The notes beneath the pieces are model-generated. The model did no database searches. It had not been told where the DNA came from and saw nothing but the letters and a program-made list of their open reading frames with translations. Both the position numbers and the translations under genes were made by a program. A DNA stretch of 58,220 nucleotides, from NCBI RefSeq assembly GCF_900002405.1, contig NZ_LK995526.1, positions 1 through 58,220 on the forward strand, read 5' to 3'. This document shows positions 41 to 20,752 of the stretch, piece after piece. Source of the stretch: Actinomyces succiniciruminis (GTDB lineage: Bacteria > Actinomycetota > Actinomycetes > Actinomycetales > Actinomycetaceae). How positions within the stretch are numbered: the first letter of the stretch is position 1; each line of letters starts with the position of its first letter.

Positions 41-100
41 ACACACCGCGTTCACGCCGAGAGCTCGTGTTTAGCCCGGCGACGTTCGGGCCGGTGTTTT

Positions 101-203
101 GCACGACCCTGGGTGACACTGCACGACCCTCGTGCGCATTGCACGACCCCGGGGTGGTCGTACAACACACACCAAGGTCGTGGAACGCGGCCCGAGGTCG
201 TGC
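101..203. repeat. Phased half-site array, left copy (GCACGACC family)
   Basis: Three direct copies of GCACGACC start at 101, 121 and 141. Three inverted copies follow: GGTCGTAC at 156, GGTCGTGG at 176 and GGTCGTGC at 196. Start-to-start spacing is 20, 20, 15, 20, 20 bp, so each arm has two-helical-turn phasing around a centre near 152. A second copy with identical spacing lies at 20650-20752 in inverted orientation, and the 12-bp spacers are also largely conserved. As RNA it would form three 8-bp helices separated by symmetric 12-nt internal loops. Function is unknown. Confidence 0.85.
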
Positions 204-388
204 AGTACATAGGGGCGGGGTGAGCGCCACTGCCACCCCGGGGCTATCGGCGTGGATGAGGTGCTTTAGACCGGCGCGCCTCGGTTCTCTAGCTGGATCG
301 TCCGGCCCAGCCCTTGCAGTCCCAGAGACCCTCCTCGCGATGAGGCGCGTTTCCCGCGTGGTCCACGCTCGTGGCGACCTGCGCGCCG

Positions 389-456
389 ACGGCTCATCAG
401 GCAGAACAACGATTCGTCAGGTGCGCTAACGGTTCATGCGTTCTGGGCGACGATTA
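389..456. repeat. Phased half-site array, left copy (ACGGTTC family)
   Basis: ACGGCTC (389), ACGATTC (409), ACGGTTC (429) and ACGATTA (450) are spaced 20, 20 and 21 bp. The segment aligns with the reverse complement of 20004-20134, for example the shared GACGG-TC-TCAGG and CAACGATTCG stretches. It is therefore the second repeat family shared in inverted orientation by the two flanks of the pilus island. Confidence 0.7.
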
Positions 457-461
457 GCCAC

Positions 462-560
462 GAACACGCGTTCGCGTCAGGAACACGAGTTTTAGAGCTT
501 TGCACGTGCCCCGCACCCGCAAACCTCCAAAACTCATGTCCTTGCGGGGAACTCGTGTAC
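462..560. repeat. Inverted half-site cluster (GAACACGAGTT family)
   Basis: GAACACG lies at 462 and GAACACGAGTT at 481. Inverted counterparts AACTCATGTCC at 531 and AACTCGTGTAC at 550 follow. The arms have 19-bp spacing on each side, and CTCGTGTACGAG (551-562) is a perfect palindrome. The design resembles the neighbouring arrays but is less regular. Together with the two arrays above it fills most of the gene-free stretch 1-684, in which I see no convincing gene. Confidence 0.5.
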
Positions 561-684
561 GAGCTGCGGTGCGCCGGACGGGGCCCGGGTCACGCTCGCA
601 AAAGCAAGACCTGTACCGCCGCGGCAGAACTCGGCGCAGCTCAGCCGCCCCACCGGCGCTGCGCGTCGAAAGGTCGGCGACCGC

Positions 685-1200: not shown

Positions 1201-1257
1201 ACCCCCAGTGTGCCACCCGGCCGGAGCTCGCGCCGCATTGCCGGCATCGCCGGCTCA

Positions 1258-3274: not shown

Positions 3275-3369
3275 GGGGTCTCCTCGAGTGGCTCGGTGGC
3301 TGATTGGGGTAGGGGTCCTGTGTACCAGGGCTCGGGGGCGCCTTGGCGCTCCGGCCGGAGGTCGGCATG

Positions 3370-3459
3370 CGTGTGGCGGGCAGACCCGGGTGGGCCTGCC
3401 CGCCACACGTTTACAACCGTGGAGGGTTGCTAGGAGCGGAACCGGCTAGTGCTGGTTCC
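3370..3459 (-). promoter_or_regulatory. Double hairpin between shaft pilin and sortase genes
   Basis: Nine bases after the pilin stop there is a 9-bp hairpin (3438-3446 with 3451-3459, loop TAGT). A second hairpin has perfect 14-bp arms, CGTGTGGCGGGCAG (3370-3383) and its complement (3396-3409), ending about 96 nt before the sortase ATG. Neither has a U-tract on the minus strand, so they look more like processing, stability or U-less attenuation signals than classic terminators. The same pair recurs at 9313-9391. Confidence 0.7.
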
Positions 3460-3467
3460 TGTCCGCG

Positions 3468-5057
3468 TCAGCCCTGGGCGCGCTGACGGTTGCGGGCCAC
3501 GAGGACCGAACCGGCGGCGAGCAGGACGAGCGCGGCACCGATCAGCATCATCAGCAGCTGGCCGTTGGCACCGGTGAGCGGCAGGTTCGGCACGTTCTGC
3601 TTGGTGTTGTCGATGGTGATGTTGTCGGCCGTGGTGGTGCCGGCGGTGATCTTCAGGGCCGTGTTGGCGGCGTCACCGGTGGGCAGCGTGTAGCCGGCGG
3701 GGGCGGCGGTCTCAACCAGCACGTAGCAGCGGGTGCTGTGCTCCGGGGAGATCTGGTCCTCGGTCTGGCCGGCCTCGCCGACGAGGGAGTCCACGAACAG
3801 GCCGGCCAGGTTGATCTGACCGTTGGCGTCGGAGGTGAAGGTGTCCACGCCACCGATCGCGACCGGGTTGCCGGTAGCGGTGCCCTTGTCGCAGCTGGCG
3901 GCGAAGGGGTCGGAGGAGTTGTAGACCTGGAACGAGGCGCCGGCCAGGGTCTTGCCGTTGTCGGCGTCGGCCTTGGTGATCACGGCGTTGCCCCAGTTGG
4001 AGACGACCGGGTTGGTCGGGTTGTCCGGCGGGTTGTCCGGCGGGTTGTCGCTGTTCTTGGTGTCCACGAACAGGTGCGCGGTGTTGGGGATGTTGCCGGA
4101 CTCGGTCACCGAGTTGGCGGTCGCGGTGAAGGTGATCACCAGCTTGGAGTCGGCCTTGCCCTTGAGGAAGGCAAAGCCATCGGCGTTGAACTCAACCTTG
4201 AGGTCCTGCCCCTCGGTGACCGTGTAGTAGCTGGAGTCCACGGTCTCGTCGTCCAGCATCACGGAGGCCACCTTGCCGTCGGTCAGAGCGGCGTTGAGCG
4301 GGTCGGTGACGTAGAAGTAGGTGAACTCGTCGTCCTCGGCGATGCTCGGCACGGTCACGGTGACCGGGAACTCGAGCTGCGCGGCGGTCTGCAGACCGTT
4401 GGCCGTGACCTCAATCCCCTTGGTGGGGGCCAGCACGACGGTGTTCTTGGGGTACACGTCAACGGTGTACAGCCACGAGCCGTCCTGCGTGGAGGCGTTG
4501 TTGGCCTCGTTGTTCGGGAAGGGGATCGTCACCAGGAAGGGCGCGGCCTTGGTAGCGACGGTCGCAGGGGCGCTGGTCTCGCAGACCAGGTAGGCGGCCA
4601 CGGACAGGCCGGAGATGGTGGTGTTGCCGTTCTCAGTCGTCGGGGCGGAGGCGGTGCCGGTGCCGAAGGTGGCGGCGTCGCCGCTGGGCAGCGTCAGCGC
4701 CGGGGTGGCGTAGTCGCTACCACAGGCATTGCCCGGGATCACCAGGTCGCCCAGACCGTTCCAGGCCGCCTGGGTGGTCAGGTCCAGGTTGGTGATCTCG
4801 TAGGCGGTGAAGACGACGTCGGCCACGCCCTTACCGGTCTTGTCAGTGGCGTCGTTGGGCGTGCCGGGGCCGTCCTCCATCGAGCCGCTCTCGAGCTTGT
4901 GAATGTTCAGCGTTCCCGTGGCGTCGGGGTCGATGTTGCCGACGGAGATGTCGGCAGCAGCCGTGGCGGCGATGCCGCCCAGCCCGGCCAGGGTCAGGGC
5001 GAGGGCCCCGGCTCCGGCGGCGACCCGGCTCGCCAGCGTGCGCGTGCTGGTGCTCAT
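3468..5057 (-). CDS. Major pilin (shaft fimbrillin), LPLTG-anchored
   Basis: This 529-aa shaft pilin resembles Actinomyces FimA/FimP. The signal peptide spans about residues 1-35 (basic start, long Ala/Leu core, cleavage near TAAA-DIS). The pilin motif W-x3-V-x-VYPKN carries K204, the likely acceptor for sortase-catalysed linkage. CnaB-like domains follow. The E-box YVLVETAAPAGY has E449, which would support an intramolecular isopeptide bond. The sorting signal LPLTG is at 492-496, followed by a hydrophobic helix and the tail RNRQRAQG. Length and order match type 2 shaft pilins. An Asn-Pro-rich linker (PPDNPPDNPTNP) separates the middle and C-terminal domains. The ATG at 5057 has AAAGGA about 10 nt upstream. 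The gene lies 114 bp downstream of the tip gene and 193 bp upstream of the sortase. Confidence 0.93.
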   Translation of the reverse strand: MSTSTRTLASRVAAGAGALALTLAGLGGIAATAAADISVGNIDPDATGTLNIHKLESGSMEDGPGTPNDATDKTGKGVADVVFTAYEITNLDLTTQAAWNGLGDLVIPGNACGSDYATPALTLPSGDAATFGTGTASAPTTENGNTTISGLSVAAYLVCETSAPATVATKAAPFLVTIPFPNNEANNASTQDGSWLYTVDVYPKNTVVLAPTKGIEVTANGLQTAAQLEFPVTVTVPSIAEDDEFTYFYVTDPLNAALTDGKVASVMLDDETVDSSYYTVTEGQDLKVEFNADGFAFLKGKADSKLVITFTATANSVTESGNIPNTAHLFVDTKNSDNPPDNPPDNPTNPVVSNWGNAVITKADADNGKTLAGASFQVYNSSDPFAASCDKGTATGNPVAIGGVDTFTSDANGQINLAGLFVDSLVGEAGQTEDQISPEHSTRCYVLVETAAPAGYTLPTGDAANTALKITAGTTTADNITIDNTKQNVPNLPLTGANGQLLMMLIGAALVLLAAGSVLVARNRQRAQG

Positions 5058-5171
5058 GGGTTGGGATTCCTTTCATGTGCGCCGCCGACGGCGACGCGTA
5101 TGAGGGGTTGAAACAAATCTCTGGGGTTGAGGCCGGCCACCGCCCGTGCGGTTGCTGCGCCGGCACGGGGC

Positions 5172-7925
5172 TCAGCTCTGGACGTGGTGCGCGCGGCGCC
5201 TCCTCACGAGTCCAGTGGCGAAGGCCAGGGCTGCCAGGGCGCCCCCGCCGATGAGGAAGGTGTCGGCCCCAATACCACCGGTGAGCGGCAGGGTGGGAAC
5301 CTCGGTCTTCTCGTTGGTGAATGCCGCCGCGAAGCTGTATTCGAGCTGGTCGGGCAGGATCCGGAAGGTGTGGCTGGTGGTGTCGAGCACGTAGCCGGCG
5401 GGCGGCTTGGACTCGACCAGGGTGTAGTCGGCGTCCTCGTTCCAGGCCAGGCCGGTGACCTTCAGGGTGCCCGCGGCGGGGTCGGAGTCGTAGTAATCGG
5501 CGTCCCCGGCCTGCTCGGCGCAGGCCTCGGCGCTGTCGGCGACGCAGTCGGTGATCGTGACGGGCTCACCGACGCCGGGCAGGGTGAGCTGCCACTCGGA
5601 GCCGGACAGGGCCTTGCCGTTGTCGGCGTCGGTCTTCTGCCAGGTGACCGATCCGGTCAGGCGCTCGTTGACCACGTCGCCGTAGTCGGCGTCGAGGCCG
5701 CCCTCGGCGTCGGGGCCGATGGTGAACTCGTGAGCCTGTTCATCGAGCTGGTAACCGGTGGGCACCTTGGACTCGGTGAGGGTGTAGGTGCCCCAGGCCA
5801 GGTCGGTCAGCTGGAAGTGTGCCGCAGCCGCGTCCTGGTCCGTGAAGGGCCGGCTGGAGCAGCCGCCGGTGCAGTCGGTGACGGTGGTCCCGTCGGGGAC
5901 GCCCGGGCCGGTCAGGGTCCACTCGGTGCCCGCGAGGTCCTGGCCGGTGTCGTCGACCTTGTGCCAGGTGATGGAACCGGGTTGGTCGGCGTTGGTGAAG
6001 GTGCACACCGTCAGGGTGGCGTTGGCGGTGGTGACGTTCGGGTTGTTCTTGCTGACTCCGGCGACGACGGTGGTGGGGTTGGTTCCGACAGCGCCCTGCG
6101 TGCAGGCCAACGACTCCAGCTCATAGCCGGCGTTGGCGGCGTCGGTCTTGCCGGCCTCGGCGAGCGCGTAGCTGCCGGCGCCGACGTAGCGGGTCTGGCC
6201 GGTGGCGTAGGTCAGCGTGGTCTGGCCCGAGGTGGCCGTCAGGTCCCAGTCGGCGGCGGCGGCGGTGCCCCCGTAGTTGTTGTTGACCTCCTTGACCAGC
6301 CGCAGCTGGGCGGGCAGGTTCAGCAGGTAGTCCTCGACCTCGCCGCCGACGGTGACGCCGGTGGGCTTGCTCTCGGCGGTGGCCGTGGAGGCGCGCAGCC
6401 GCAGGTAGGTGACGGTCTGGTTGACGAGGTTGGTGTCGACGGGCGCCTGGGGCACGTTGAAGGTCAGGTTGACGCGGCCGGAGGCGGGGCAGGCCTGGGT
6501 ATTGGAGCCCTCGTTGTCTTGGAACCTGCCGTCACCGTTCCAGTCGATCCAGCCATGGATCTTGCCGTCGCCGCCGCAGCCGACGCCGGTGATGGTGTAG
6601 GTGCTCGTGTCCCCATTGAGGACGTCTATCGGCAGCATGGCGCCCTGCTGTATGGAGGAGTTGCCGTCCAGAGCGTCCTCATCGTCATTGACACCGTTGC
6701 TGTCATCGCCGTCCGCGCCGGCGGAGTGCTGCTGGTAGGTCTCGGAGTCGATGCGGGTCCCCAGGTGCACGGTGGAGGGCGGCTCGTTGGTGATGTCGGC
6801 CAGGGTCATGCCCCACACGCTCTGTCCCTGCCAGCCGGTGTTGCTGAGAGCGGTGCCGGTGGTCCAGCTGGGCTGGAAGAGGGCGCCGGCGGTGCCGTAG
6901 GACTCCGGCGCGTCGCCGAAGTCGGTCTCGACGACCACACCCAGGGCGACGGCGGTGTAACCGCGGCCCTGGATCTCCACGCCCGCGGAGGTGGCGCCCT
7001 TCATGAACATGACCGTCCCGGGGCCATTGCCGCTACTCGGGTTGTTGTGAGTCCCACCGTTGTTGTACGCGCACTCCTGCCCGTTGGGGCTCATGCGCAT
7101 GAAGTTGCTGGTCTGCCCGTTCCACCAGTTCGTCTGACTCTGAGCCGAAATGAGCACGTCGGTGGTGCAGCCGCTGCGGGAGCGGTCCAGGGCGTACCAG
7201 GTGACATTGGAGGCATTGGAACTGGGGGCCGCCTGAATCCACTCGGCCTGGTTGGCCTCTCCAACCCCCGATGAAGTGGATGATGCCTCGGCGTCGGCGA
7301 ATACGAGCCCCTGAAGCGGGACCTCCGCGCCGTTCAGCGTGGCGGTGCAGGAGAAGTTGAAGGACAGCCGGGCGTGGTCCATGGTGTTGCGCAGACCAAT
7401 GACCATCTGGTTGTTGTTGGCGTAATCGCGCGGGAAGGTACCTACCCGCCCGGTCGTCCAGTAGCCGGTGCCGCCCACGTTGTACAGGTCATCGAGAACG
7501 TCTCCCGCCCAGTCACCGGGCGCGTAGGCCTTGAGCCCGGAGCGCACGTAGGCATTGTTCTCGTCGTAGCCGTAATCGGCGTAGTTCCCGCCCTCACTGC
7601 GCTGCTTCTGCAGGTTGGAGATGGTGCAAGTGGTGACGAGGGTGCCGCCCTCGCCGAGGTCGCGGGTGTTGGTTACCGTCTGAGACCCGGCAACGCCGGC
7701 AGTGAGCAGGAATTGGTTCTTGGTACCCCACTGGATCCACTGGATGTCGTTCTTGAAGCGGCCCGCGCCGCCGGTGGCGAAGCCCTCCGCGACGGTTCCT
7801 GCCGCCTCAGCGGGGATGGGCGAGACGACGAGCGCGCCCGCCACGGCCAGCGCGGTACAGGCGAGGATTGCGGCAGCTCGACGCGACACCTTGCGCAAGC
7901 GGGTGGCGGCGGACTGGACAAGCAC
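5172..7925 (-). CDS. Pilus tip adhesin, GEVED and SpaA-type domains, LPLTG-anchored
   Basis: This 917-aa surface protein is the likely tip subunit of the second pilus, resembling FimB by position. The signal peptide is at about 1-40 (cleavage near AEA-AGT). A large N-terminal head follows, then DFGDAPESYGT and a GEVED-type module ending in GEVEDYLLNL. Three SpaA/prealbumin-like repeats come next, two of them starting GSITWHK and GSVTWQK and ending in VESKPPAGY-like E-boxes. LPLTG is at 879-883. The head carries several cysteines that could form disulfides. I chose the GTG at 7925 because GGAG sits 7 nt upstream and the signal peptide begins immediately; a longer ATG-initiated frame (8030) would translate the 22-bp operator-like repeats. 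Shaft and sortase genes follow on the same strand. Confidence 0.88.
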   Translation of the reverse strand: MLVQSAATRLRKVSRRAAAILACTALAVAGALVVSPIPAEAAGTVAEGFATGGAGRFKNDIQWIQWGTKNQFLLTAGVAGSQTVTNTRDLGEGGTLVTTCTISNLQKQRSEGGNYADYGYDENNAYVRSGLKAYAPGDWAGDVLDDLYNVGGTGYWTTGRVGTFPRDYANNNQMVIGLRNTMDHARLSFNFSCTATLNGAEVPLQGLVFADAEASSTSSGVGEANQAEWIQAAPSSNASNVTWYALDRSRSGCTTDVLISAQSQTNWWNGQTSNFMRMSPNGQECAYNNGGTHNNPSSGNGPGTVMFMKGATSAGVEIQGRGYTAVALGVVVETDFGDAPESYGTAGALFQPSWTTGTALSNTGWQGQSVWGMTLADITNEPPSTVHLGTRIDSETYQQHSAGADGDDSNGVNDDEDALDGNSSIQQGAMLPIDVLNGDTSTYTITGVGCGGDGKIHGWIDWNGDGRFQDNEGSNTQACPASGRVNLTFNVPQAPVDTNLVNQTVTYLRLRASTATAESKPTGVTVGGEVEDYLLNLPAQLRLVKEVNNNYGGTAAAADWDLTATSGQTTLTYATGQTRYVGAGSYALAEAGKTDAANAGYELESLACTQGAVGTNPTTVVAGVSKNNPNVTTANATLTVCTFTNADQPGSITWHKVDDTGQDLAGTEWTLTGPGVPDGTTVTDCTGGCSSRPFTDQDAAAAHFQLTDLAWGTYTLTESKVPTGYQLDEQAHEFTIGPDAEGGLDADYGDVVNERLTGSVTWQKTDADNGKALSGSEWQLTLPGVGEPVTITDCVADSAEACAEQAGDADYYDSDPAAGTLKVTGLAWNEDADYTLVESKPPAGYVLDTTSHTFRILPDQLEYSFAAAFTNEKTEVPTLPLTGGIGADTFLIGGGALAALAFATGLVRRRRAHHVQS

Positions 7926-7981
7926 TACACGACTCCATGGGTATGCGCGGCCGGGGCGCCGCTCTCGGTACTTAAAGGCTT

Positions 7982-8046
7982 CACCTAGGTCATCCGGAGG
8001 ATGGTCACTAGCCATGTGGGGGATAGCCACTAGCCATCTGGGGGAT
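7982..8046 (-). promoter_or_regulatory. Tandem 22-bp repeats upstream of second pilus operon
   Basis: CACTAGCCATGTGGGGGAT (8006-8024) recurs with one change at 8028-8046, a 22-bp period. A third, degenerate copy lies at 7982-8002. The repeats sit 57 to 120 bp upstream of the tip-gene GTG, where operator or activator sites would be expected. No matching regulator gene is in the window. Confidence 0.6.
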
Positions 8047-8157
8047 GCCCGAGACGAAGATACCGACGGATTCCCGCCCTTCTACCCGCCGAACCGAGCT
8101 GTGCTAAACCTGTGGCACACCCGTGCCAGTGTCGTAGCAAGTCGGTTACCACGGTGA

Positions 8158-8207
8158 CCTTATCGAGTCCGCTTAAGCCGCGATAAGGCCTATTTCCCCG
8201 GGGAAAT
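8158..8207 (-). terminator. Palindrome plus hairpin after first pilus operon
   Basis: Directly after the sortase stop (8215) lies the perfect 16-bp palindrome ATTTCCCCGGGGAAAT (8192-8207). Next is a hairpin with 8-bp arms CCTTATCG (8158-8165) and CGATAAGG (8181-8188). Position fits termination of the upstream operon, although there is no long T-run. The palindrome could also be an operator. Confidence 0.5.
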
Positions 8208-8214
8208 GTGCCGG

Positions 8215-9213: not shown

Positions 9214-9312
9214 TGGCTTCCTTCTGTGTGGCTCGTGGCGGATATGAGTGTGGCTGCGCGCGGACGGTGCCGGTGGCACCACGGTAGAGCGCCTGGGGCG
9301 GTACCGGTGACG

Positions 9313-9391
9313 ACGACGGCGTGCGCGTCCGGAGTATCCGGCCGGCGCACGCCGTCGTGTCACCGGGTGGGGCGGCCATCATGCCGCCCCA
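9313..9391 (-). promoter_or_regulatory. Double hairpin between shaft pilin and sortase genes
   Basis: The proximal hairpin has 9-bp arms TGGGGCGGC (9368-9376) and its complement (9383-9391), with a 6-nt loop, 13 bp after the pilin stop. The distal hairpin has perfect 14-bp arms ACGACGGCGTGCGC (9313-9326) and its complement (9345-9358), ending 100 nt before the sortase ATG. The layout equals that at 3370-3459 although the sequences differ. Confidence 0.7.
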
Positions 9392-9403
9392 GCCCTGTGG
9401 TTG

Positions 9404-11038: not shown

Positions 11039-11107
11039 CTGTTCTCCTCGTTGATGGGGTTGTGGGTTACCCGGCTGCCCGGTTGGCCCCTGGCTGTTCC
11101 CGGTCGC

Positions 11108-14100
11108 TCAGGCCCTACGGCCCCGGCGGCGGGAAGTCTGGGTGATGGTCAGGACCAGTGCCGCGGTGAGCAGCAGCCCGGCCCAGGCCACGTACACGCC
11201 GATGCCGCGTCCGCCCGAGAGGGGCAGCGTGCCGGTTTCGACGTCGTGGATGTTGATGCCGATGGCGGTGACGACGTTGCCGTCGGCGTCGGTGACGGCG
11301 GGGATCACCGCGATGGTGTCCGCCGTCAGGTTGGTTTCGGCGAGCGTGATGGTGGTGTTGCCGTCGGCGTCCACACCCAGGTGGAACTGGATGGGCCGCG
11401 GCAGCAGGCTGTGCCCGGCGGGCGCCTTGGTCTCAACCACCCAGTAGTCGTGGTTGATGGGCAGGCCCGCGGAGGTGAACAGGGAGCCGTCCACCGGATC
11501 CACGCTCACGCCGTTCTCAATCGGGGCGGCGCCGTCCGTGGCCGGGTCGACGTCGTAGATGTCGAACTCGGCGCCGGGCAGGTTGGTGGTGCCGTCCGCC
11601 TGCACCTGGGTGCCGGTCTTGCGCAGCGTGATGATGCGCTTGCCGGCGTCCGGGGTGACCGGCTCGCAGGCGGTGTTGTCGCTGCGGCCGGAGGCGTCGC
11701 GCCCGTCGGTCGGGTAGACCTCGTTGAACAGGCCGTGGCCGGGGGTGCGGGTGCCGTCCGCCTCGACGGAGCACTCCAGCAGCTCCTCCGAGTAGTCGGT
11801 GTTGCCCGGGTCGACGGTCACCGTGAAGGTGATCGTGTACTGGGCGCTCTGTCCGGGGGCGATCACGTCGCCGGCGGTGAGGGTGTAGTAGCCCTCGGCG
11901 TCGGCCGCGGCGGCCACCGGGTCCCCGCCGGGGGCGGTGACGGTCACCTGGTCGATGTCCAGGCCGGGAGCGAAGTCGGGCTTGTCGCGCAGCAGCCCGG
12001 TGGACTGGGCCAGCTCGCCCTCGTTGGTCACCGTGATGGTGTAGGCGACGTCGAAGCTGGAGCTGGTTCCCACGCCGGTGGTGGCGACGGACTTGGACAC
12101 GGTAAGCCGGGGCGTGAGGTCCAGGCAGGCGGTGTTGTTCTCATCGCCGTCGGTATCGCCCACCATGGCGGTGGTGTTGACCAGACCGGAGGGGGCGCCG
12201 TCGGCGCGCTCGTGCCCGCACTGGTAGTCGGTGTCCTCGAAGTCCGCGGCGGAGTCGACGGTGAAGCTCACCTGGACGGTGATCACGCGCGTGCCGCCGC
12301 CGGTGACGGTGCCGTCCTCCCCGGCGGTGCCGCCGGCCAGCACGGGACCGGAGTCGGCCCGGGCCAGGGTGATGGGCCCGTCCAGCACGCCGTCGGTGAT
12401 GCCGGGAATCTCGGCATCCGTAGCCGCCTCACCGTTCTCGAGGACGGCGACGCCGGTGATCTTGGCGGTCTCCGGCAGGGCGGGGGTGTCGGTGACGTCG
12501 GCGATGATCTGGCTGGCGGCGCGGGAGGTGTTCTCCACGGTCACCGTGTAGGTCGCGGTGTAGGTGTCCCCGTTGCGGACCACGTCGACGCCGTCCTTGC
12601 GCACCGAGAACTTCGGGTTGGTCGGGACGTCGCCGCAGTCCTCGGCGGTGTCCGTGACCTCGCCGGAGGTGACGGCGGCGGTGTTGTGGATGGCGGTGCC
12701 GTCGGTGGCGGCCTGCGCGCTGCACTCGCCGTCGCCGACGCCGGGGATTCCGGTGTCGGGCGCGGTCACGTTCAGCACCACGGTGTAGGTGTGGGTGGCG
12801 CCGGCCGGCAGGGTTGCGCCGTCGACCACGGTCACGGGCCCGGAGGCCTGCGTGAGCGCGTCTGCCAGGGCGCCGCCGGTGACGGTGATGGAGTTCAGCG
12901 TGGTGCCCTCGGGCACGGTCGGGGTGTCCACCAGGTCGTAGGTGAGGTCCTGCACCTGCGAGGGGTTGGTGACGGTCACCTCGTAGGTGACGTCCCAGGT
13001 CTCGCCGGTCCAGTTGCCGTCGGCGTCCAGGTGCTTGCTGGTGCCCGTGAAGGTCTTGTTCACGCCGGCGTGCGGGGCGACGTCGTTGGTGACCGTGGCG
13101 GTCACGGCGGCGTCGGCCTGTGCGGGCAGGGTGAAGGTGACCGCTCCGGGGGTGGAGGTGTCGGCGTCGGCGCCCTCGACCTCGTAGGTCATGGGGTCGG
13201 TCCATGTGAAGGAACCGTCCGCGGGCGCGGCGAGGGCGTCGTCCCCGGGCGCCGCCTCGGTCAGGGTGCAGGTGGCGCCCACGGGCACGTCCGCCACGGC
13301 GACGGCGGTGCCGTCGGCGGGCAGGGTGAGCGTGCCGGTGAAGGTGTCCTGCCCGGCGGTGCAGGTGTAGTCCACCGTGTAGCTCTCGCCGGTGGCGCCG
13401 TCGGTGGCCCCGGAGATGGCCTTGTTGACGGTGAAGCCGGTGGCCAGGGTGCGCTCGTCGGCGGCGTTGGTGACTTCGGCGGTGGAGGTGGCGTCCCGGG
13501 CGATGGTCTGCGCCTGGGTGACGGTGCCGTAGTCGCCGTCGAGCTCCGGGTCCGTCCACTGGTAGGACGGGTCGCCACTGACCGGGGCGGTCGGACGGCC
13601 GGTCTCGGTGACCGTGCAGTCGGAGCCGACCAGGATCTGCGTGTAGTCGCCGGTCAGGGTGGCGGCGCCGGCGCCGGTGACTCGCCAGGTGCCCTCGTTG
13701 CCGGTGCCGTCAGGGGCGGTGCAGGCCCAGGTGCCGGCGTAGGTGTTGGATTCGGCGGCGGTGACGCCGTCGAGCCCGTTCACGAGCTTGTTGATGGCCA
13801 GGGCGCCGTAGATGCGCTGGGTGGAGTTGGTGACCCGCAGCACCGGGTCGGAGTCCTGGGCGATACCCGTCAGCGTGTTGCCGTCGGTGAAGGTCTGCCC
13901 GTCGGCGGCGACGTCGTAGGCGGGGTTGTTCCACGTGTAGGAGACGTCCGTCAGCCCGGAGGTGTCGATGGGCGTGTCCTCGGTGAGGGTGCAGTCGGCG
14001 CCGGCGTAGATGGTGGCGCCGGCGGCGCCCTCACTGACGGTGGTGGAGCCGCCGGAGGCGGGCAGCTCCCAGCGTCCGCCGACCTCGCTGCCGTCCGCCT

Positions 14101-17100
14101 GGGTGCAGGACCAGCCGCCGCGCACGGTGGCGCCGTCGTTCAGGGCGCCGTCGATGCCGGTGTAGGCCTTGGTGATGGTGAGCGGCTGGGCGGCGCGCTC
14201 GGCGTCGTTGGTGACGGTGAGCGTGTTGGCGGCGGCGTCCGCGCCGATGGTGACCGGGTCGGAGACGGTCGGCTCGGCCCAGCGGTAGGAGATGTCCTTC
14301 AACTGGTCCTGAGTGGGGGCGTCCTCGGCGGCGGTGCAGACGGTGCCCAGCGGCAGGCCGCCGGTGGGCAGGCCGTCGATGGTGGCCGCGCCGGCGCCGT
14401 CGGCCGTCCAGGTCAGGCTCCAGTCCTGGGTGATGCCCTGGCCGTCGTCGTAGTGGCAGGCGATGTCGCCGGAGAAGGACTCGTCGACGACGACGCCCTC
14501 GGACAGCCCGTCCCCGTAGGCCTTGGTCAGGCTCAGGTCGGAGGTGACACGGCGGATCGTGTTGGTGGCGGACACCGCCACGGTCTCATCCTTGGTGATG
14601 GTGACCTCGTCGGGGAAGACGGTGGCCATCTCCCAGGCGTAGGAGGAGTCCTTGAGCTGGTCCTGGGTGGGGCTGGTCTCGCTGATGGCGCAGGTCCAGC
14701 CGGCCGGGATCTCCCGGTCGAAGGCGACGCCGCTCTCGCCGTCCGCGACGGTGGCGGTGGCGGTGAGCTCGCCGTCCACACCGGGGGCGGTGCAGGTGGC
14801 GTTCAAGGTGAAGGTCTGGCCGTCCTTGAGGCCGTCCGTCTCCCCGATGACCGTCTTCGCGGCGGTCAGGGAGCCCATGTCCCGGTTCACGGTGTTGGTG
14901 ACGGTCATCGCGGCGGTGCCGTCCGCCGTCACGGTGGCGGCGTCGTAGCTGGGCTCGCCCCAGGAGAAGGAGGGGTCGGTGTCCGGGGCGCCGGAGGCGT
15001 CCAGGTCCTCGGTGGGCGTGCAGGTGGAGTCGACGTAGGGGGCCTCGCCGTCGTCGTAGGTGATGGCGGCGTTGCCGGCGCCGTCCACGCTCCAGGTGCC
15101 GGTCACGTCGGCGTCGCCGTCGTGGGTGCAGGTGAAGGCGCCGGAGTAGGTGTTGTCGGCGCCGAACTGGGTGGCCAGTTCGCCGGAGAGCACCTTGTTC
15201 AGGTTCACGTCGGCGCGCACGCGCTCAATGGTGTTGGTGACGGTGACGGTGCCGGAGGAGGCGTCCTCGCTGGTGATCCGAACCGGGTCGGTGATGGTGG
15301 GCTCGCCCCAGGCGTAGGAGCCGTCGGCCAGGCCGCCGCTGATGGTGCCCTCGGTGACCGTGCAGGTCTGGCCGAGCGGGATGTCGCCGACCGTGACGGT
15401 CTCGCCGTCGGCGAGGGTCCCGGAGTAGGCCTGGGCGCCGTCGCAGGTGACGGTGATGGGGAAGAGCTTCTCCCCGGCGCCGGTGAAGCCGTTCGCCTTG
15501 TTGTTGTCAGCCACGGTCTTGGTGACCTGAATGGAGCCGTAACGCTCACTCATGGTGTTGGTGGCGGCCACGGCCACACCCGGCTCGTCCCCGCCGGGCA
15601 TGGTGAAGGAGATGCTCCCGCCGTCCGCGGACACGCTCGCCCCGGTCGACGGGGTGGCTGTCATGGAGGTGCCGTCGGCGTCCCAGCGGTAGGGGTCGAT
15701 GGCGGCGGGCAGGGCGTCCGTGCTCTCGGTGACCGTGCAGGATGAGCCCTCCGGGATGCCGGTGATGGGCTCCGTGACCTGGCCGGCGCGCACGGTGGCG
15801 GTGCCGGTGATGGCCTCGCCGCTGAGCGGGGTGCAGGTGTAGGTGAAGGTGAAGTCGGTGTCGGCGAAGCCGGTGCCGGCCTCGGCGCCCTCCACGCTCT
15901 TGGTGATGGTCAGCCCGCCGGTGGTGCGGGCGACGACGTTGGTGACGTCCACGTTGCCGGTGCGGGTGTCCGGGTCGATGGTGACCGGGCCGGAGGTGGT
16001 GCCGGCGGTGGAGAACACGTAGGAGGAGTCGGCGGCGTTGGGCGCGCCGGGGTCTTCCTCGGTGACCGTGCAGGTGGAGCCGAGCAGCACGGCGGCGCTG
16101 GTGCCGCCCGCGGTGGCGGGACCGGAGGTGACGCTCAGCGTGGCGGCGCCGGAGCCGGTCACCGACCAGGTGCCGGTGGCGTCGTCGTCGCCGGGGTGGC
16201 TGCAGGTCCAGGTACCGGTGTAGGTGTTGTCGGCGCCCTGCCCGTCCAGGTCGGTCAGCTGCTTGGTGATGGTGAAGTCGCCGTAGTCGCGCTGCCAGGT
16301 GTTGGTGACGGTGACCTGCTCGGTGTGGTCGCCCTGGACGGTGACGCTCTGGTCTTCGGGGCCGGCGGTCCACTTGTAGGAGGCGTCGGTCAGGCCTGTG
16401 GAGCCGGTGGGCGCGGTCTCGCTGACGGTGCAGTTGGCGCCGGCGGCGATGTACGGGGTGGTGGCGGTGGCTTCCGAGCCGGTGGCCGCCAGGTCGAAGG
16501 CGCCGGTGTAGTTCTCCGTCTCGCCCTGGGCGGGCGCGTCACAGGTGACGGTGACGGGGAAGGTGGTGCCGGCGGTCACGGGGCCGGCGTCGGGGCTGAC
16601 GTTCTTGGTGACAGCCACCTTGCCCCAGGCGGCCTCGGTGGGGTTGACGACGGTGACGGTCTTGCCGCCGTCGGCCGCGCTGACCATGGTGCCCTCGGCG
16701 GCGTCGAGGCCCTCGTAGCTGGGGGTGCCCCAGTCGTAGGCGTCGGCGAGCAGGTCCTCGTTCAGGGAGGAGGCGGGCTCGGAGACGGTGCACAGGGCGC
16801 CGCGGGGTACCTGCACGGTCGTGGAGGCGCCATTGGCGACGTTGACGGTGCCGGCGTAGTCAGCTCCGCAGTCGTAGTCGATGGCGAAGGTGGCGTCGCC
16901 GCCGTTGTAGCCCTCGCCGTCGACCTGCTTGGCGACGTTCAGGTCCACCAGCACGCGCTTGTAGGTGTTGGTGACGGTGATGGTCTCGGAGGTGTCCTTG
17001 CCGACGGTGACGCTGGGCTTATCGAAGCTGCCCGCGCCGGTCCACTCGTAGGAGGAGTCCTTGAAGTCGCCGTCCGCGGTCTCGGGGGCGGTCTCGGTGA

Positions 17101-19474
17101 AGGAGCAGGTGGTGCCCGCGGGGACGGTGAGCGTCGCGGGGGTTCCGGTGGAGACGTCCAGCGTGCCGGAGCCGCCGTCGCCGTCGCAGGTGTAGGAGAC
17201 CTCGAAGGTGCGGTCCGCTCCGCCGGTCCAGCCGCCCGCGGCGGTCTCGTCGGCCGGCTCGACGACCTTGTTGACGTCGATGGTGCCGGTGTTGCGGACG
17301 ATGGTGTTGGTGACGTTCACCTGGCCGGCGGCCGGGGCGGTGGGCACCTGGACCGTCGGGTTGTCGATGCTGGGGGTGGTCCACTCGTAGGAGTCGTCCT
17401 TGAGGTCGCCGCTGGGGGCGTCCTCGGTGACGGTGCACTCGGCGCCCACGGGCAGGCCGGAGATGACGGCGGGCGTGGCGGTGGTGGCGGACCAGGTGCC
17501 GGCGAAGTCGCGGCCGTTGGCGCTGCCGCAGTCGTAGGTACCCGTGTAGGTCTTGTTCTGATCGGTCAGGCCGCCGTCGGGATCCGAGACGGTCTTGTTG
17601 ATCTGGATGGAGCCGGTCTTGAAGGTGTTGGTGACGGTGCAGGTGACCTGCTCGTCGACACCAAGGGTGACCTGGGAGTCGGTGACGGCGACGGCATCGC
17701 CGTCCTGGTTCACGCAGCTCCAGTCGCCCTGCTGGGAGAAGCCCTCAACGTTGCCGGTGGTGGCCTCCGACAGGGTGTAGGTGCCCGAGCGGGTCCACTG
17801 GCCGGTGACGGACTCCTCGCCGGACAGGCCGGAGATGGTCCGGTAGGGGAAGGCGGCGCCCTCGGCGGAGGTCTGGGTGGGGGTGGCCGTCAGGGTCCAG
17901 TTCTTCTCGCTGACGGCGGGGAAGGTCATCCCGTCGATTTCCTTGACGAGGGTGAGCTGGGAGCGGCCGACGTACTCGTTGTGCCAGGTGCAGGTGATAG
18001 CAGTGTTCTCGGCCGTGTCCGCCAGGTCCGAGCTGGACAGGTCGAGCGTGCCCTCGGAGAGGTTGACAGCGGAGTCGGTGAGCACCTCACCCCTGCGGTT
18101 CAGGAGCTCCTCGCCGTTGCCGTCGGTGACACAGGTGACCCCGGTCAGGCGCCAGCCGGAGGTGGTGTCGGTCGCCGTGTTGGCGTTGCTCTCCTTGACG
18201 ACGGCCTCGTCGTCCGGGGCCAGCAGTTCGTAGCGCCTGGAGTCGTGCGCGGTGCCGGCCTCGCCCCAGTCGGTGGGGGTCAGGGAGCTGATGCTGCCCC
18301 AGTCGGCAAGCGCCGTGGACCCTTCGGCGGAGACGTTCTCGTAGTCGAAGGTGGGGATGGTGGTCGAGTCTTCGAGCGAGGGGTCGGTGGTGACGTCCTT
18401 GGCGAAGGTGACGGCGCGGACCTGCTCCAGGGAGCCGTACAGGCAACCGTAGGTCTCGGCGTTCTCCTTGGTGATGAAGGTGTCCTCCAGGTTGTCCTGG
18501 TCGGACAGGTCCGCCGAGCAGGTGCCGCTGGTGCCGTTGTTGACGAAGCCCCACAGCTTCAGCTTGTACTGGATGCCGGTGGTGGTGTCGGTCCAGGCGG
18601 TCGATTCGGTCGCGGAGGCCACCTCGAGGATGTCGTCCTCGCAGGAACGGCCGAAGTTGTCGTAGATGGCGCCGCCTTGGTCACCGGCCACGGCGACGTC
18701 GCCGTTGGGGAGGGAGACAAGTCTACCGTTGCGGTCGTAGGCGTAGTGGTAGTTGCCGTTCCAGTTCCCAACGTACTGCCATCCGTTCCAGTACCACGTC
18801 CCCGTGGAACGGAGCCCTATGTTGCCATTCGCGTCATAGGCGTACTGGCCGCTGCCGTCGGAGACGTAGTGTCCCTCGGCGTCGAAGGTGGAGCGGCAGG
18901 TGTTGGCGGTCTCGGTCAGCGTCCAGGGGAAGGAGGAGCTGATGGCCTTGCCGAGCGTGAGGTCCATGGTGCCATTGACGACCGTCGGGGTGAGTTGACC
19001 GAGTTGCACCACCGGGCGGTTACTGTGGCGCATGGTGGCCACCAGGAAGGGACTGCCAGCAGTGACGCTGTCCGTCGCCGCAGGCTTCAGTCCGACGGTA
19101 CTCTGAACCTCGTCGTTGTAGACAGTTGGACAGTTGACCATTCCCTGCGCGCGGCTGTAGCCGAAGGACGCAAAGATGTTCTGTGAGGAACTGACCTCCG
19201 AAGTGCTGTAACCGGCCCCCCGAGGGGAGTAACGCACACACGCGGAGTCATACGCCGACGCAGGGGTGGTATAGGAGTTCGTCGTCACGTCGTGTTGAAT
19301 TGCCGTCGCCTCACCCAGGTCAACTACCACTTCAGCCGCCTGAGCGGTCGGCTGAATCGGCAGTACCGCGCCGCCGATGAAGGCGCTGGCGAACAGCGCA
19401 AGCACGGTGACGACCGCCGTCAGTCTGGACCGAGAAGGCAAGCGCTTCCGGCGCGATGAATCGGCGTGATGCAT
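11108..19474 (-). CDS. Giant pilus tip adhesin with 13 Cys-paired repeats (DUF5979-type), LPLSG-anchored
   Basis: This 2788-aa surface protein heads the first pilus operon. It has a signal peptide (about 1-45), a head domain (about 50-500) and one prealbumin-like domain (about 505-620). Thirteen tandem repeats of about 116 residues (about 621-2130) follow. Each has an initial (N/T)K, one Cys in a YTC/YDC-type strand, a second Cys in C(T/S)(V/F)(T/S)E, and a closing VTNT-like strand. This pattern suits DUF5979 and implies a disulfide and possibly an isopeptide bond per repeat. Three DUF11-like repeats (about 2131-2600), a SpaA-type domain with E-box WVVETKAPAGH, and the sorting signal LPLSG (about 2749) complete it; Ser replaces the usual Thr. 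The head contains YAYDANGN and YAYDRNGR, resembling YD repeats. The ATG at 19474 is chosen because the signal peptide starts there. Long plus-strand frames opposite it are shadows. Confidence 0.88.
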   Translation of the reverse strand: MHHADSSRRKRLPSRSRLTAVVTVLALFASAFIGGAVLPIQPTAQAAEVVVDLGEATAIQHDVTTNSYTTPASAYDSACVRYSPRGAGYSTSEVSSSQNIFASFGYSRAQGMVNCPTVYNDEVQSTVGLKPAATDSVTAGSPFLVATMRHSNRPVVQLGQLTPTVVNGTMDLTLGKAISSSFPWTLTETANTCRSTFDAEGHYVSDGSGQYAYDANGNIGLRSTGTWYWNGWQYVGNWNGNYHYAYDRNGRLVSLPNGDVAVAGDQGGAIYDNFGRSCEDDILEVASATESTAWTDTTTGIQYKLKLWGFVNNGTSGTCSADLSDQDNLEDTFITKENAETYGCLYGSLEQVRAVTFAKDVTTDPSLEDSTTIPTFDYENVSAEGSTALADWGSISSLTPTDWGEAGTAHDSRRYELLAPDDEAVVKESNANTATDTTSGWRLTGVTCVTDGNGEELLNRRGEVLTDSAVNLSEGTLDLSSSDLADTAENTAITCTWHNEYVGRSQLTLVKEIDGMTFPAVSEKNWTLTATPTQTSAEGAAFPYRTISGLSGEESVTGQWTRSGTYTLSEATTGNVEGFSQQGDWSCVNQDGDAVAVTDSQVTLGVDEQVTCTVTNTFKTGSIQINKTVSDPDGGLTDQNKTYTGTYDCGSANGRDFAGTWSATTATPAVISGLPVGAECTVTEDAPSGDLKDDSYEWTTPSIDNPTVQVPTAPAAGQVNVTNTIVRNTGTIDVNKVVEPADETAAGGWTGGADRTFEVSYTCDGDGGSGTLDVSTGTPATLTVPAGTTCSFTETAPETADGDFKDSSYEWTGAGSFDKPSVTVGKDTSETITVTNTYKRVLVDLNVAKQVDGEGYNGGDATFAIDYDCGADYAGTVNVANGASTTVQVPRGALCTVSEPASSLNEDLLADAYDWGTPSYEGLDAAEGTMVSAADGGKTVTVVNPTEAAWGKVAVTKNVSPDAGPVTAGTTFPVTVTCDAPAQGETENYTGAFDLAATGSEATATTPYIAAGANCTVSETAPTGSTGLTDASYKWTAGPEDQSVTVQGDHTEQVTVTNTWQRDYGDFTITKQLTDLDGQGADNTYTGTWTCSHPGDDDATGTWSVTGSGAATLSVTSGPATAGGTSAAVLLGSTCTVTEEDPGAPNAADSSYVFSTAGTTSGPVTIDPDTRTGNVDVTNVVARTTGGLTITKSVEGAEAGTGFADTDFTFTYTCTPLSGEAITGTATVRAGQVTEPITGIPEGSSCTVTESTDALPAAIDPYRWDADGTSMTATPSTGASVSADGGSISFTMPGGDEPGVAVAATNTMSERYGSIQVTKTVADNNKANGFTGAGEKLFPITVTCDGAQAYSGTLADGETVTVGDIPLGQTCTVTEGTISGGLADGSYAWGEPTITDPVRITSEDASSGTVTVTNTIERVRADVNLNKVLSGELATQFGADNTYSGAFTCTHDGDADVTGTWSVDGAGNAAITYDDGEAPYVDSTCTPTEDLDASGAPDTDPSFSWGEPSYDAATVTADGTAAMTVTNTVNRDMGSLTAAKTVIGETDGLKDGQTFTLNATCTAPGVDGELTATATVADGESGVAFDREIPAGWTCAISETSPTQDQLKDSSYAWEMATVFPDEVTITKDETVAVSATNTIRRVTSDLSLTKAYGDGLSEGVVVDESFSGDIACHYDDGQGITQDWSLTWTADGAGAATIDGLPTGGLPLGTVCTAAEDAPTQDQLKDISYRWAEPTVSDPVTIGADAAANTLTVTNDAERAAQPLTITKAYTGIDGALNDGATVRGGWSCTQADGSEVGGRWELPASGGSTTVSEGAAGATIYAGADCTLTEDTPIDTSGLTDVSYTWNNPAYDVAADGQTFTDGNTLTGIAQDSDPVLRVTNSTQRIYGALAINKLVNGLDGVTAAESNTYAGTWACTAPDGTGNEGTWRVTGAGAATLTGDYTQILVGSDCTVTETGRPTAPVSGDPSYQWTDPELDGDYGTVTQAQTIARDATSTAEVTNAADERTLATGFTVNKAISGATDGATGESYTVDYTCTAGQDTFTGTLTLPADGTAVAVADVPVGATCTLTEAAPGDDALAAPADGSFTWTDPMTYEVEGADADTSTPGAVTFTLPAQADAAVTATVTNDVAPHAGVNKTFTGTSKHLDADGNWTGETWDVTYEVTVTNPSQVQDLTYDLVDTPTVPEGTTLNSITVTGGALADALTQASGPVTVVDGATLPAGATHTYTVVLNVTAPDTGIPGVGDGECSAQAATDGTAIHNTAAVTSGEVTDTAEDCGDVPTNPKFSVRKDGVDVVRNGDTYTATYTVTVENTSRAASQIIADVTDTPALPETAKITGVAVLENGEAATDAEIPGITDGVLDGPITLARADSGPVLAGGTAGEDGTVTGGGTRVITVQVSFTVDSAADFEDTDYQCGHERADGAPSGLVNTTAMVGDTDGDENNTACLDLTPRLTVSKSVATTGVGTSSSFDVAYTITVTNEGELAQSTGLLRDKPDFAPGLDIDQVTVTAPGGDPVAAAADAEGYYTLTAGDVIAPGQSAQYTITFTVTVDPGNTDYSEELLECSVEADGTRTPGHGLFNEVYPTDGRDASGRSDNTACEPVTPDAGKRIITLRKTGTQVQADGTTNLPGAEFDIYDVDPATDGAAPIENGVSVDPVDGSLFTSAGLPINHDYWVVETKAPAGHSLLPRPIQFHLGVDADGNTTITLAETNLTADTIAVIPAVTDADGNVVTAIGINIHDVETGTLPLSGGRGIGVYVAWAGLLLTAALVLTITQTSRRRGRRA

Positions 19475-20003
19475 TGACGACTTCCCCACACGTATCGGAA
19501 CCAGGAAACCGCTCCCAGAGAAAGCGGCCTCGCGAGCAGCATTGACCACTCACGGGTCTTTAACAGTACCGCGTTACCTTGAGGTCTGACGCACGTTTGA
19601 CCGTCTTTGCTGCAACATTTCAAGCACGATCTACATAACCGCCATACATACACAACGATATGACTACGATTGCCACCCAAACAGGCATAAACGAAGCCTC
19701 GTTCGGAAATCTTCGCACCAATTGCCCTCTGGCCGCTTGAGTCACTTCACCCGGTGCGGCCCCCAGCCGACCACGGGCCCCGTCCGCCTGTGGCAGGACC
19801 ACCTGCCGAAGCACGCGCTCGTCGGCCTGCTCGGCCGCCGACGGCGCCTTCCTCCGGGACCGCCTCCTCACGCATGCACTCGTCGGCGATCCTGAAGGCG
19901 ATTCAACCGGCTCTTCCGGTTTGAAGATGTGGTAAGCCTGGTGGAGGTCACCCGACTGCGGGGGGTGCGTCCTGGTGCGGGGGTGTGCGCGGTGGGGTGT
20001 GTG

Positions 20004-20134
20004 ACGGTTCGTGCGTTGGCCCGACGGTTCGTGCGTTACGGTCAACGATTCATCCCTTCCCGCAACGGTTCGCGGGGTAGGTGCACAAACCGTCGCGGTT
20101 CATGGCGAATCGTTGCTGCTACCTGACGAACCGT
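20004..20134. repeat. Phased half-site array, right copy (ACGGTTC family)
   Basis: Four direct sites ACGGTTC (20004), ACGGTTC (20024), ACGATTC (20045) and ACGGTTC (20065) are followed by inverted AAACCGT (20087), GAATCGT (20107) and GAACCGT (20128). Spacing is 20-21 bp within each arm. The first two units share the 14-mer ACGGTTCGTGCGTT, which recurs as ACGGTTCATGCGTT at 429. The whole segment aligns in inverted orientation with 389-456. Confidence 0.8.
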
Positions 20135-20649
20135 CACACGCGAGAAGCATGCGATCCCTCCGCCCCCTTCAGGGCGGCCCGCGCAGTCGGAGCCCTGGCA
20201 GTGATTGTCATGATCCGGGACAAACGCGCCTCAACACCCCCAGAGGCGATCCTGCATCCGCGTGATTCCAACGTTTCGCTCGCGGCCGCCAACACTGCCG
20301 GGCCCGTTTGTCCCGGCTGGCTATACTCCGGGCCGCCGACCACAACAGCATGCGCACCGATGGCAAGCCGGAGTTATCGGCGTGAACGTGCGTGTAGGAT
20401 CAGGGCTTTTCGTTGACGTGGTGGGCGGGAAAGTCGGGTTCAATTGGCGGTGGGGCGTGATTCAGCATGCTTCGCACTAACAGGCCGCGTTGTGCGGTAT
20501 GCGGCTCCGGGATGATACGTACCGGCCCACCGCCTCCCTGGAGGCTGGACTCTCTTGGTGGCCCGCAGCCCCACGTGACCGGCTCGCGCTGTGGGCCGCA
20601 CCCGAGAGCGCGGTGGCCAGCCCCCGAATCACTCACCCGCTCGTGCCTT

Positions 20650-20752
20650 GCACGACCTCGGGCCGCGTTCCACGACTTTGGTGCCTGTTGCACGACCACC
20701 CCGGGGTCGTGGAAAGCGCACCAGGGTCGTGCAGTAACGCCCAGGGTCGTAC
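20650..20752. repeat. Phased half-site array, right copy (GCACGACC family)
   Basis: GCACGACC (20650), CCACGACT (20670) and GCACGACC (20690) are followed by inverted GGTCGTGG (20705), GGTCGTGC (20725) and GGTCGTAC (20745). Spacing is 20, 20, 15, 20, 20 bp, identical to the copy at 101-203. The reverse complement aligns with that copy over about 105 bp with roughly 85% identity by eye. Confidence 0.85.

What the first reader, a model, noticed from the sequence alone, without database searches (positions are those of the whole stretch)
101..20752. Two half-site arrays with exact 20-bp phasing flank the pilus island as inverted copies
GCACGACC-type octamers are placed 20-20-15-20-20 bp apart at 101-203 and with identical spacing, inverted, at 20650-20752. 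ACGGTTC-type heptamers are spaced 20-21 bp at 389-456 and inverted at 20004-20134. Both families are thus mirrored around about 19 kb of pilus genes. Two-turn phasing of direct, then inverted, half-sites is expected for a multimeric protein filament or a large symmetric RNA fold, not for ordinary REP or MITE sequences. I know of no described element with this design.
Basis: seen in the sequence. Interest (0 to 1): 0.85.

Follow-up and report, generated by a model that had tools for sequence, protein, structure and literature searches.

The report
Palindromic repeat arrays paired with nucleases
The mirrored 20-bp-spaced motifs are scattered copies of small palindromic repeat families, and each family has its own nuclease gene elsewhere in the genome that sits between two copies of the same repeat, which looks like an undescribed enzyme-plus-mobile-repeat partnership.

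Summary
The arrays are real: 46 and 44 of 48 matches to the 3+3 design, shuffles at most 29. The mirror around the pilus island is coincidental. Both families are dispersed (at least 24 A cores; 27 B arrays), and the island stands without arrays in G065 and G012.

A different association emerged. DUF559/MTES_1575 (Vsr-like) nuclease genes lie between two matched repeats: 29 of 30 loci, 33 of 40, and 21 of 26 in other genera; controls 0 of 31 and 4 of 73. In the window's genome A, B and a third family (D, window 464-559) each flank a different paralogue, 31-39% identical. Ten of ten repeats tested have copies elsewhere. Of 81 re-examined repeats 47 are plainly palindromic, control 3; direct repeats inside recur at 19-21 bp in 34 of 51, 4.4 expected.

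Best reading: a REPIN/RAYT-like partnership with an unrelated nuclease. Association is shown; binding, cutting and mobilisation are inferred. No target duplication was seen; concerted change shows in one of four species; structure prediction never ran.

The parts
98..206 (.). A-family array: 3 direct + 3 inverted CACGACC units, 20-20-15-20-20 (dispersed copy)
   Evidence: orthologous array beside the same PH-domain gene in A. glycerinitolerans (L157)
20649..20755 (.). A-family array, second copy, lying inside an IS1249-like remnant
386..460 (+). B-family half array (four ACGGTTC-type units, forward only)
20000..20140 (.). B-family palindromic array (4 direct + 3 inverted units, spacing 20-22)
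464..559 (.). D-family palindrome (AACTCGTG motif); 82% identical over 96 bp to both repeats that flank the D-type nuclease gene on contig C55
   Evidence: L276, L284 and L292
20373..20866 (+). IS1249-like remnant (terminal repeats TATCGGCGYGNAYGTG at 20375 and 20847, transposase-like fragment) that holds the A array; homology to four relatives stops at 20867
   Evidence: family name from then on another copy
3468..19141 (-). Pilin, adhesin and sortase genes (pilus island): context, not part of the system
   Evidence: synteny

Best explanation
The window's arrays are dispersed, non-coding members of several short repeat families (A, B, D). Each family is paired with one nuclease gene elsewhere in the same genome: an AbiEi-like part plus a Vsr/DUF559/MTES_1575 nuclease part. 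That gene sits between two copies of its own repeat. Proposed working (inferred): the nuclease recognises the phased half-sites or the hairpin they can form, nicks or cuts there, and repair by copying spreads and resizes the repeats, while the nuclease gene stays put and is inherited vertically. This is the logic of REPINs and RAYTs with an unrelated enzyme. Shown: flanking pairs, one repeat per paralogue, dispersed copies, presence/absence and unit-number variation between species, and a species-specific repeat form shared by nuclease-flanking and dispersed copies in A. ruminicola. Inferred: binding, cleavage, mobilisation.
For: Matched repeat on both sides of the nuclease: 29 of 30 loci (28 with at least 40 bp), 33 of 40 (30 with at least 40 bp; 2-kb flanks), and 21 of 26 in other genera. 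Controls, at least 40 bp: 0 of 31 and 4 of 73; Fisher p 1e-18 for 28/30 against 4/73. Repeats plainly palindromic in 47 of 81, random pieces 3 of 81. Paralogue-specific motifs: A in six genomes, B in five and D in three. Copies elsewhere in 10 of 10 genomes of 5 genera. A. ruminicola nuclease-flanking arrays match its own dispersed arrays at 93.7%, other species' at 80-82%. Direct-repeat pitch 19-21 in 34 of 51, 4.4 expected (related loci not fully collapsed). E241, D272, E283, D285, K289 invariant in 25 of 25. Only solved-structure hit: 3r3p, 'Mobile intron protein' (E 0.007). Of 37 genus genomes, an A-type nuclease (79% identity or more) occurs in 4 of the 5 array-rich ones and in none of the 32 others (p 8e-5; confounded by relatedness).
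Against: G005 keeps 23 A matches without an A-type nuclease; G018 keeps one array. In the other three species tested, nuclease-flanking A arrays are not closer to their own dispersed arrays than to those of A. glycerinitolerans or A. ruminis. No target-site duplication at the absent/present loci read. The nuclease units look vertically inherited, not mobile. 7 of 40 and 5 of 26 loci lack matched repeats; three matches were only 32-38 bp and five lay more than 1 kb from the gene on one side. Only 8 of 30 loci show an exact 2+2 phased array on both sides, and 34 of 81 repeats are not plainly palindromic. Arm covariation in A is weak. No binding or cleavage data.
Confidence: 0.55

Rival explanations
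1. Regulatory reading: the AbiEi-like part is an autoregulator, the flanking arrays are its operators, and dispersed arrays form a regulon or are decayed operators. The nuclease serves defence or addiction, and nothing is mobilised.
For: PADLOC AbiEi models match 17 of 25 nucleases; phased half-sites suit a dimeric or multimeric DNA binder; one repeat commonly lies about 110-425 bp upstream of the gene.
Against: A second copy lies downstream of the gene. Dispersed A copies sit outside called genes (0 of 78 inside) and are more often between convergent genes than background gaps (21/65 against 25/143, p 0.02). They come and go between close species.
Confidence: 0.22
2. The arrays are internal parts or MITE derivatives of IS1249-like insertion sequences, mobilised by that transposase.
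For: Terminal repeats TATCGGCGYGNAYGTG (26 matches with up to 1 mismatch, reversed-pattern control 0) lie within 500 bp of 10 of 24 A arrays of the window's genome, 10 of 21 of A. glycerinitolerans and 5 of 20 of A. ruminis.
Against: They lie near 0 of 13 A arrays of A. ruminicola. The longest IS copy read (C80) shows no array in its readable part; about 100 bases there read as N. A different array family (E) lies inside a similar remnant in A. glycerinitolerans.
Confidence: 0.07
3. The palindromes are bidirectional terminators or mRNA-stabilising RNA hairpins without a dedicated enzyme; nuclease genes are insulated by them.
For: Enrichment between convergent genes; 47 of 81 flanking repeats are plainly palindromic, with 44 double changes at paired positions against 14 expected, 22 of them compensatory.
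Against: Each nuclease lineage has its own repeat; control genes are rarely flanked by repeat pairs (0 of 31, 4 of 73). A-family spacers covary weakly.
Confidence: 0.08
4. One reading: inverted arrays frame the pilus island and allow its inversion or its packing in a filament.
For: Two A copies are inverted around the island.
Against: Both families are dispersed; the island occurs at the same place without arrays in G065 and G012.
Confidence: 0.02

Closest known systems
REPINs / REP sequences with RAYT transposases
   Same: Short palindromic extragenic repeats, several families per genome, each beside its own single-copy enzyme gene, with many dispersed copies (described for RAYTs in passages of PMC3116915, and PMC3733652).
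   Different: The enzyme is a Vsr/DUF559-type nuclease with an AbiEi-like part, not a tyrosine (Y1/HUH) transposase. Repeats often hold ~20-bp-phased units, 3+3 or 4+4 in families A and B.
EDxHD / Vsr-like homing endonucleases (I-Bth0305I; that 3r3p is this enzyme and the EDxHD label are recalled)
   Same: Related catalytic region (3r3p, E 0.007).
   Different: Genes and repeats here are intergenic, and the repeats occur in many copies; I did not look for intron or intein hosts.
AbiE type IV toxin-antitoxin (AbiEi antitoxin)
   Same: Profile similarity to AbiEi models in 17 of 25.
   Different: Joined to a nuclease domain. A partner AbiEii gene was not looked for.
MTES_1575 REase / DUF559 proteins
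   Same: Nuclease domain: MTES_1575 in 21 and DUF559 in 11 of 25 at E up to 0.01, best E 3e-6 and 6e-6; the first member (L132) is below Pfam's own cut-off. PMC3710099 (passages) names the Vsr-type MTES_1575 REase within a HEPN fusion protein.
   Different: I found no mention of repeats around these genes in the listings searched.
CGTC-tagged REPs
   Same: Palindromic repeats said to lack a dedicated transposase (PMC3733652, passages).
   Different: Not compared in sequence here. Whether a nuclease lies beside them was not tested.

Membership tests
REPIN/RAYT | Enzyme is a Y1 (HUH) tyrosine transposase | tested here: not met
   25 flanked proteins match MTES_1575, DUF559, RAP or AbiEi models at E up to 0.01, no transposase model
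REPIN/RAYT | Enzyme gene flanked by copies of its own repeat | tested here: met
   29/30, 33/40 and 21/26 loci; controls 0/31 and 4/73
REPIN/RAYT | The repeat is palindromic | tested here: met
   47 of 81 by a strict test, control 3 of 81; 34 of 81 not plainly so
REPIN/RAYT | Many dispersed non-coding copies of the same repeat | tested here: met
   A and B; 10 of 10 further genomes have 1-14 listed copies besides the flanking two
REPIN/RAYT | GTAG tag at the foot of the repeat | not tested
   No systematic scan was made
REPIN/RAYT | Transposition shown | not testable with these tools
   Only presence/absence between species seen
IS1249-derived MITE | Repeat carries the IS terminal repeats at its ends | tested here: not met
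   None within 500 bp of 13 A. ruminicola arrays and of 14 of 24 arrays in the window's genome, up to 2 mismatches
IS-type transposon | Target-site duplication at filled against empty sites | tested here: inconclusive
   None visible at the loci read, but joins are imprecise
Vsr-like homing endonuclease (EDxHD) | Catalytic-domain relationship | tested here: inconclusive
   3r3p only, E 0.007; conserved acidic residues; no structure could be predicted
Vsr-like homing endonuclease (EDxHD) | Gene inserted at its own target in an intron or intein | not tested
   Not searched for
AbiE toxin-antitoxin | AbiEii toxin gene beside AbiEi | not tested
   Neighbour genes were not scanned
Strict RNA/ssDNA hairpin family | Compensatory changes keep the arms paired | tested here: inconclusive
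   A family weak; 81 loci show 44 double changes against 14 expected, 22 compensatory and 22 not

The most novel reading that the evidence does not exclude
A previously unrecognised class of enzyme-linked mobile repeats in Actinobacteria: a single-copy AbiEi-Vsr fusion nuclease reads half-sites spaced two helical turns apart on both arms of a palindrome and propagates that palindrome through the genome by cut-and-copy, with each nuclease lineage evolving its own private motif.
Probability: 0.42. Interest if true: 0.93.

Novelty: categorically new. Interest (0 to 1): 0.82.

Why it matters
If right, RAYTs are not the only enzymes that keep short palindromic repeats alive; an unrelated nuclease family has reached the same arrangement. 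It would give DUF559/MTES_1575 proteins a likely substrate, and give orphan actinobacterial palindromes a candidate enzyme. The one-repeat-per-paralogue rule makes protein-DNA specificity directly testable with dozens of natural pairs. A stricter reader could call it a new variant of the REPIN/RAYT kind, since the organisation is the same and only the enzyme is unrelated.

Tried and rejected
Pilus-island framing: rejected by synteny. Rfam at gathering threshold: only tRNAs in the window and in 20 loci. Strict RNA hairpin for A: covariation weak. IS1249-like MITE: terminal repeats led to remnants around some arrays but not to the arrays themselves. Carriage on viral contigs: no exact A core and no nuclease relative confirmed. 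Solved-structure search: one weak hit. Structure prediction: never ran, queue full in six tries. One search listed minus-strand loci in the wrong orientation; corrected and not used. One search did nothing useful (module name clash).

Rows dropped or chosen: I dropped L332 and L353 (flank windows overlap) and L328 and L334 (same genus) before counting 21 of 26; the call itself printed 25 of 30. One search left out L277, L332, L334 and L353 and used a stricter E-value (1e-4), leaving 81 loci. In one search I dropped two chance clusters on C24 from the B count. Of the 40 loci, three (L274, L279, L312) were already known to lie near arrays; without them it is 30 of 37. The ten repeats were picked by me from strongly folding ones. 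One search collapsed only the A and B loci, so related loci still count more than once in the pitch test. The 31 control loci belong to only two genes; the 73 are more independent.

Palindrome-nuclease co-divergence (Mantel r 0.52, 0 of 2000 permutations) is mostly driven by close orthologues: below 60% protein identity no pair of repeats looks alike, so I use it only as a sign of motif turnover. Listed in-frame stops in some nuclease hits may be ordinary stop codons at gene ends; I make no claim of pseudogenes.

Full report
OBSERVATION. Scored against the 3+3, 20-20-15-20-20 design the window gives 46 and 44 of 48; the best of 30 shuffled windows gives 29. The octamer by itself is not enriched. 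The first ACGGTTC stretch is half an array; the second is a near-complete palindrome.

DISPERSED FAMILIES. The window is a whole contig (C71) of a 3.33-Mb genome in 90 contigs. Among the loci fetched, family A has 24 cores there (at most 3 mismatches of 24), family B 27 arrays counting partial ones; both are lower bounds. In 59 genomes (own, 36 others of the genus, 22 of the order), A matches 6 (own, G005, G012, G014, G030; G018 once) and B matches 5 (the first five). G064 and G065, not in that set, were later found to carry A arrays too. In the named GTDB collection the exact A core occurs in 49 stretches, 53 arrays, all from A. ruminis, A. ruminicola or A. glycerinitolerans, always with a 9-base centre although 6-14 was allowed. 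No viral contig holds the exact core. Of 78 A cores, none lies inside a called gene; 21 lie between convergent genes, 33 tandem, 11 divergent, 13 unclassified (my own simple gene caller, which missed the nuclease gene below). Convergent placement is modestly enriched over gaps above 100 bp (p 0.02).

THE ISLAND IS NOT THE POINT. The methyltransferase gene at 21062-22633 exists in 49 of 49 genus genomes. I read about 18 kb beyond its 3' end in 20 of them. In 9 of the 20 the gene at 1258-2181 follows within about 530 bp. In G065 and G012 the pilus genes lie between these two genes, both edges covered, with no A or B array (at most 3 of 24 and 4 of 28 mismatches). Homology between the window and G012, G064, G065 and G014 stops at 20867, the edge of an IS1249-like remnant that holds the second A array. 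The family name comes from the longest copy read, on contig C80 (NCBIfam IS1249, E 7e-20, below its cut-off as a fragment). The mirror symmetry is therefore a coincidence of dispersed repeats.

PRESENCE, ABSENCE AND SIZE. Beside a glycosyl-hydrolase-like gene (weak endo-1,6-beta-glucanase match; 'GH30' is my recalled label) the A array has 3+2 units in G000, G005 and G065, 2+2 in G064 and G012, 2+1 in G018, and is absent in G014 and G030. In G060 a palindrome of another motif with 19-bp pitch sits at the same spot. At a second locus G000, G030 and G005 are filled while G014 and G064 are not; at a third, an array is present in G000, G014, G030 and (degenerate) G065 and missing in G012, G005 and G064. 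No clean target duplication was visible.

A CLASS, NOT ONE FAMILY. A motif-free search (the same 6-mer twice at one pitch, then twice inverted) over 381,773 bases of other species' loci found 15 arrays, six at pitch 19 and three at 20, the rest at 15-34; two of them are A arrays of G064 and G065. Five shuffled sets together gave 3. Motifs differ between species.

THE NUCLEASE. One pair of A arrays encloses a 371-residue gene (L132:5585-6700). Homologues occur in 47 of 49 genus genomes. In the best-match locus of 30 genomes, exact phased 2+2 arrays stand on both sides in 8: A in six, a GGTCGTAC family in G028, a CTCGTTC family in G021. A blast of upstream against downstream flank finds a matched repeat in 29 of 30; the exception is a partial gene. 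Among 40 further loci, 33 have one; three of the 40 were already known to lie near arrays (30 of 37 without them), three matches are only 32-38 bp, and five lie over 1 kb from the gene on one side. In other genera, 21 of 26 (after dropping four rows), spanning 11 family codes. Controls at 40 bp or more: 0 of 31 loci of two other genes and 4 of 73 genes of similar size; at that length the nuclease counts are 28 of 30, 30 of 40 and 21 of 26. By a strict self-inversion test 47 of 81 of these repeats are plainly palindromic, against 3 of 81 random pieces of the same loci; the others are weaker, tandem or unclear.

ONE REPEAT PER PARALOGUE. In the window's genome the A arrays flank the C26 nuclease, the B arrays the C30 nuclease and the D repeat the C55 nuclease; these are 31-39% identical to one another. 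The window's own D copy (464-559) is 82% identical over 96 bp to both C55 flanking repeats. B flanks its orthologues in G005, G014, G030 and G064; D in G014 and G064. No nuclease of this family was found in the window itself. Repeats of ten nucleases from ten genomes (5 genera), picked by me from strongly folding ones, all have copies elsewhere: listed places, the two flanking ones included, are 16, 15, 13, 12, 11, 8, 7, 6, 5 and 3, counted by me from a truncated list. Direct 6-mers inside flanking repeats recur at 19-21 bp in 34 of the 51 that have any (of 72 loci), 4.4 expected.

CONCERTED CHANGE, IN ONE SPECIES. Every arm unit of the 11 dispersed A. ruminicola arrays (22 of 22) has the GGGG spacer, and so do the arrays around its nuclease. 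Flanking against own dispersed arrays: 93.7% identity; against other species' arrays: 80-82%; other species' flanking arrays against A. ruminicola's dispersed ones: 77-78%. In the other three species there is no such excess (for example, window genome 82.2% to its own against 83.7% to A. glycerinitolerans). The named-species copies were retrieved by an exact core pattern, which inflates identity of the core motif in all of them alike. G005 keeps 23 A matches without an A-type nuclease, a result against strict dependence, or a decaying family.

THE PROTEIN. In 25 aligned members E241, D272, W275, P276, E283, D285, G286, K289 and Y290 are invariant, as expected for a PD-(D/E)XK, Vsr-type site (family knowledge, recalled). 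Pfam at E up to 0.01: MTES_1575 in 21 and DUF559 in 11 of 25, best E 3e-6 and 6e-6. PADLOC: AbiEi models in 17 of 25. PDB: only 3r3p, 'Mobile intron protein', E 0.007, recalled to be the homing endonuclease I-Bth0305I, which PMC11879112 (passages) sets beside Vsr. No structure could be predicted.

MECHANISM. Shown: pairing, privacy of the motif, dispersion, gain or loss, unit-number change, and shared species-specific form in A. ruminicola. Inferred: the nuclease binds the half-sites (the AbiEi-like part is the candidate reader), cuts the array, and repair copies it. The nuclease gene itself seems vertically inherited (B and A units keep their neighbours across species). The parallel is REPIN/RAYT (passages of PMC3116915, and PMC3733652), but the defining Y1 transposase is absent, so it is not a member of that family.

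NOVELTY. Searches for DUF559 alone (14 papers listed) and with palindromic, transposon or mobile terms, for MTES_1575, REPIN/Vsr, the I-Bth0305I family, AbiEi with repeats and Actinomyces repeats showed nothing describing this in the listings. The library is open-access only, so absence is not proof.

Noticed in passing
L174:853-965 (A. glycerinitolerans, G014): A further array family (E: GTTGGACC x3 then GGTCCAAC x3, 19-bp pitch) lies inside an IS1249-like remnant beside the same methyltransferase gene where the window has its second A array.
   Followed up: partly
G000 contigs C16:15481-16023, C84:40723-41336, C85:163282-163897: B arrays are followed by long one-directional arrays of about 20-bp units (GAACACGACCTC-type, family C), giving up to about 600 bp of repeated sequence.
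   Followed up: partly
G000 contigs C22, C23, C24, C48, C53, C58, C68: Contigs begin or end in, or within about 350 bp of, B arrays, so these repeats may break the assembly.
   Followed up: no
L259, downstream of the nuclease (G032): Five copies of the same repeat follow the nuclease at intervals of 181-262 bp.
   Followed up: no
L230:2773-2839 (G060): At the orthologous 3' end of the glycosyl-hydrolase-like gene, where relatives carry an A array, this genome carries a palindrome of another motif (CGAGATxGAC): perhaps a shared insertion spot for different families.
   Followed up: partly
window 3468-19141 and L184-L187, L195, L196: The pilus island lies next to the same methyltransferase gene in six of the 20 regions read and is missing in others, with a 2,677-residue DUF5979 repeat protein as its largest gene.
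   Followed up: partly
window 241-330: A solo end resembling the IS1249-like element follows the first A array (compare; one-mismatch terminal repeat at 245).
   Followed up: partly
window 1-60: Two copies of ATGTCCTGAG near the contig end look like the end of another insertion sequence (IS481-like by recollection only).
   Followed up: no
G005 (23 A matches, no A-type nuclease): A arrays persist without a close nuclease homologue: a natural test of whether orphaned arrays decay.
   Followed up: no
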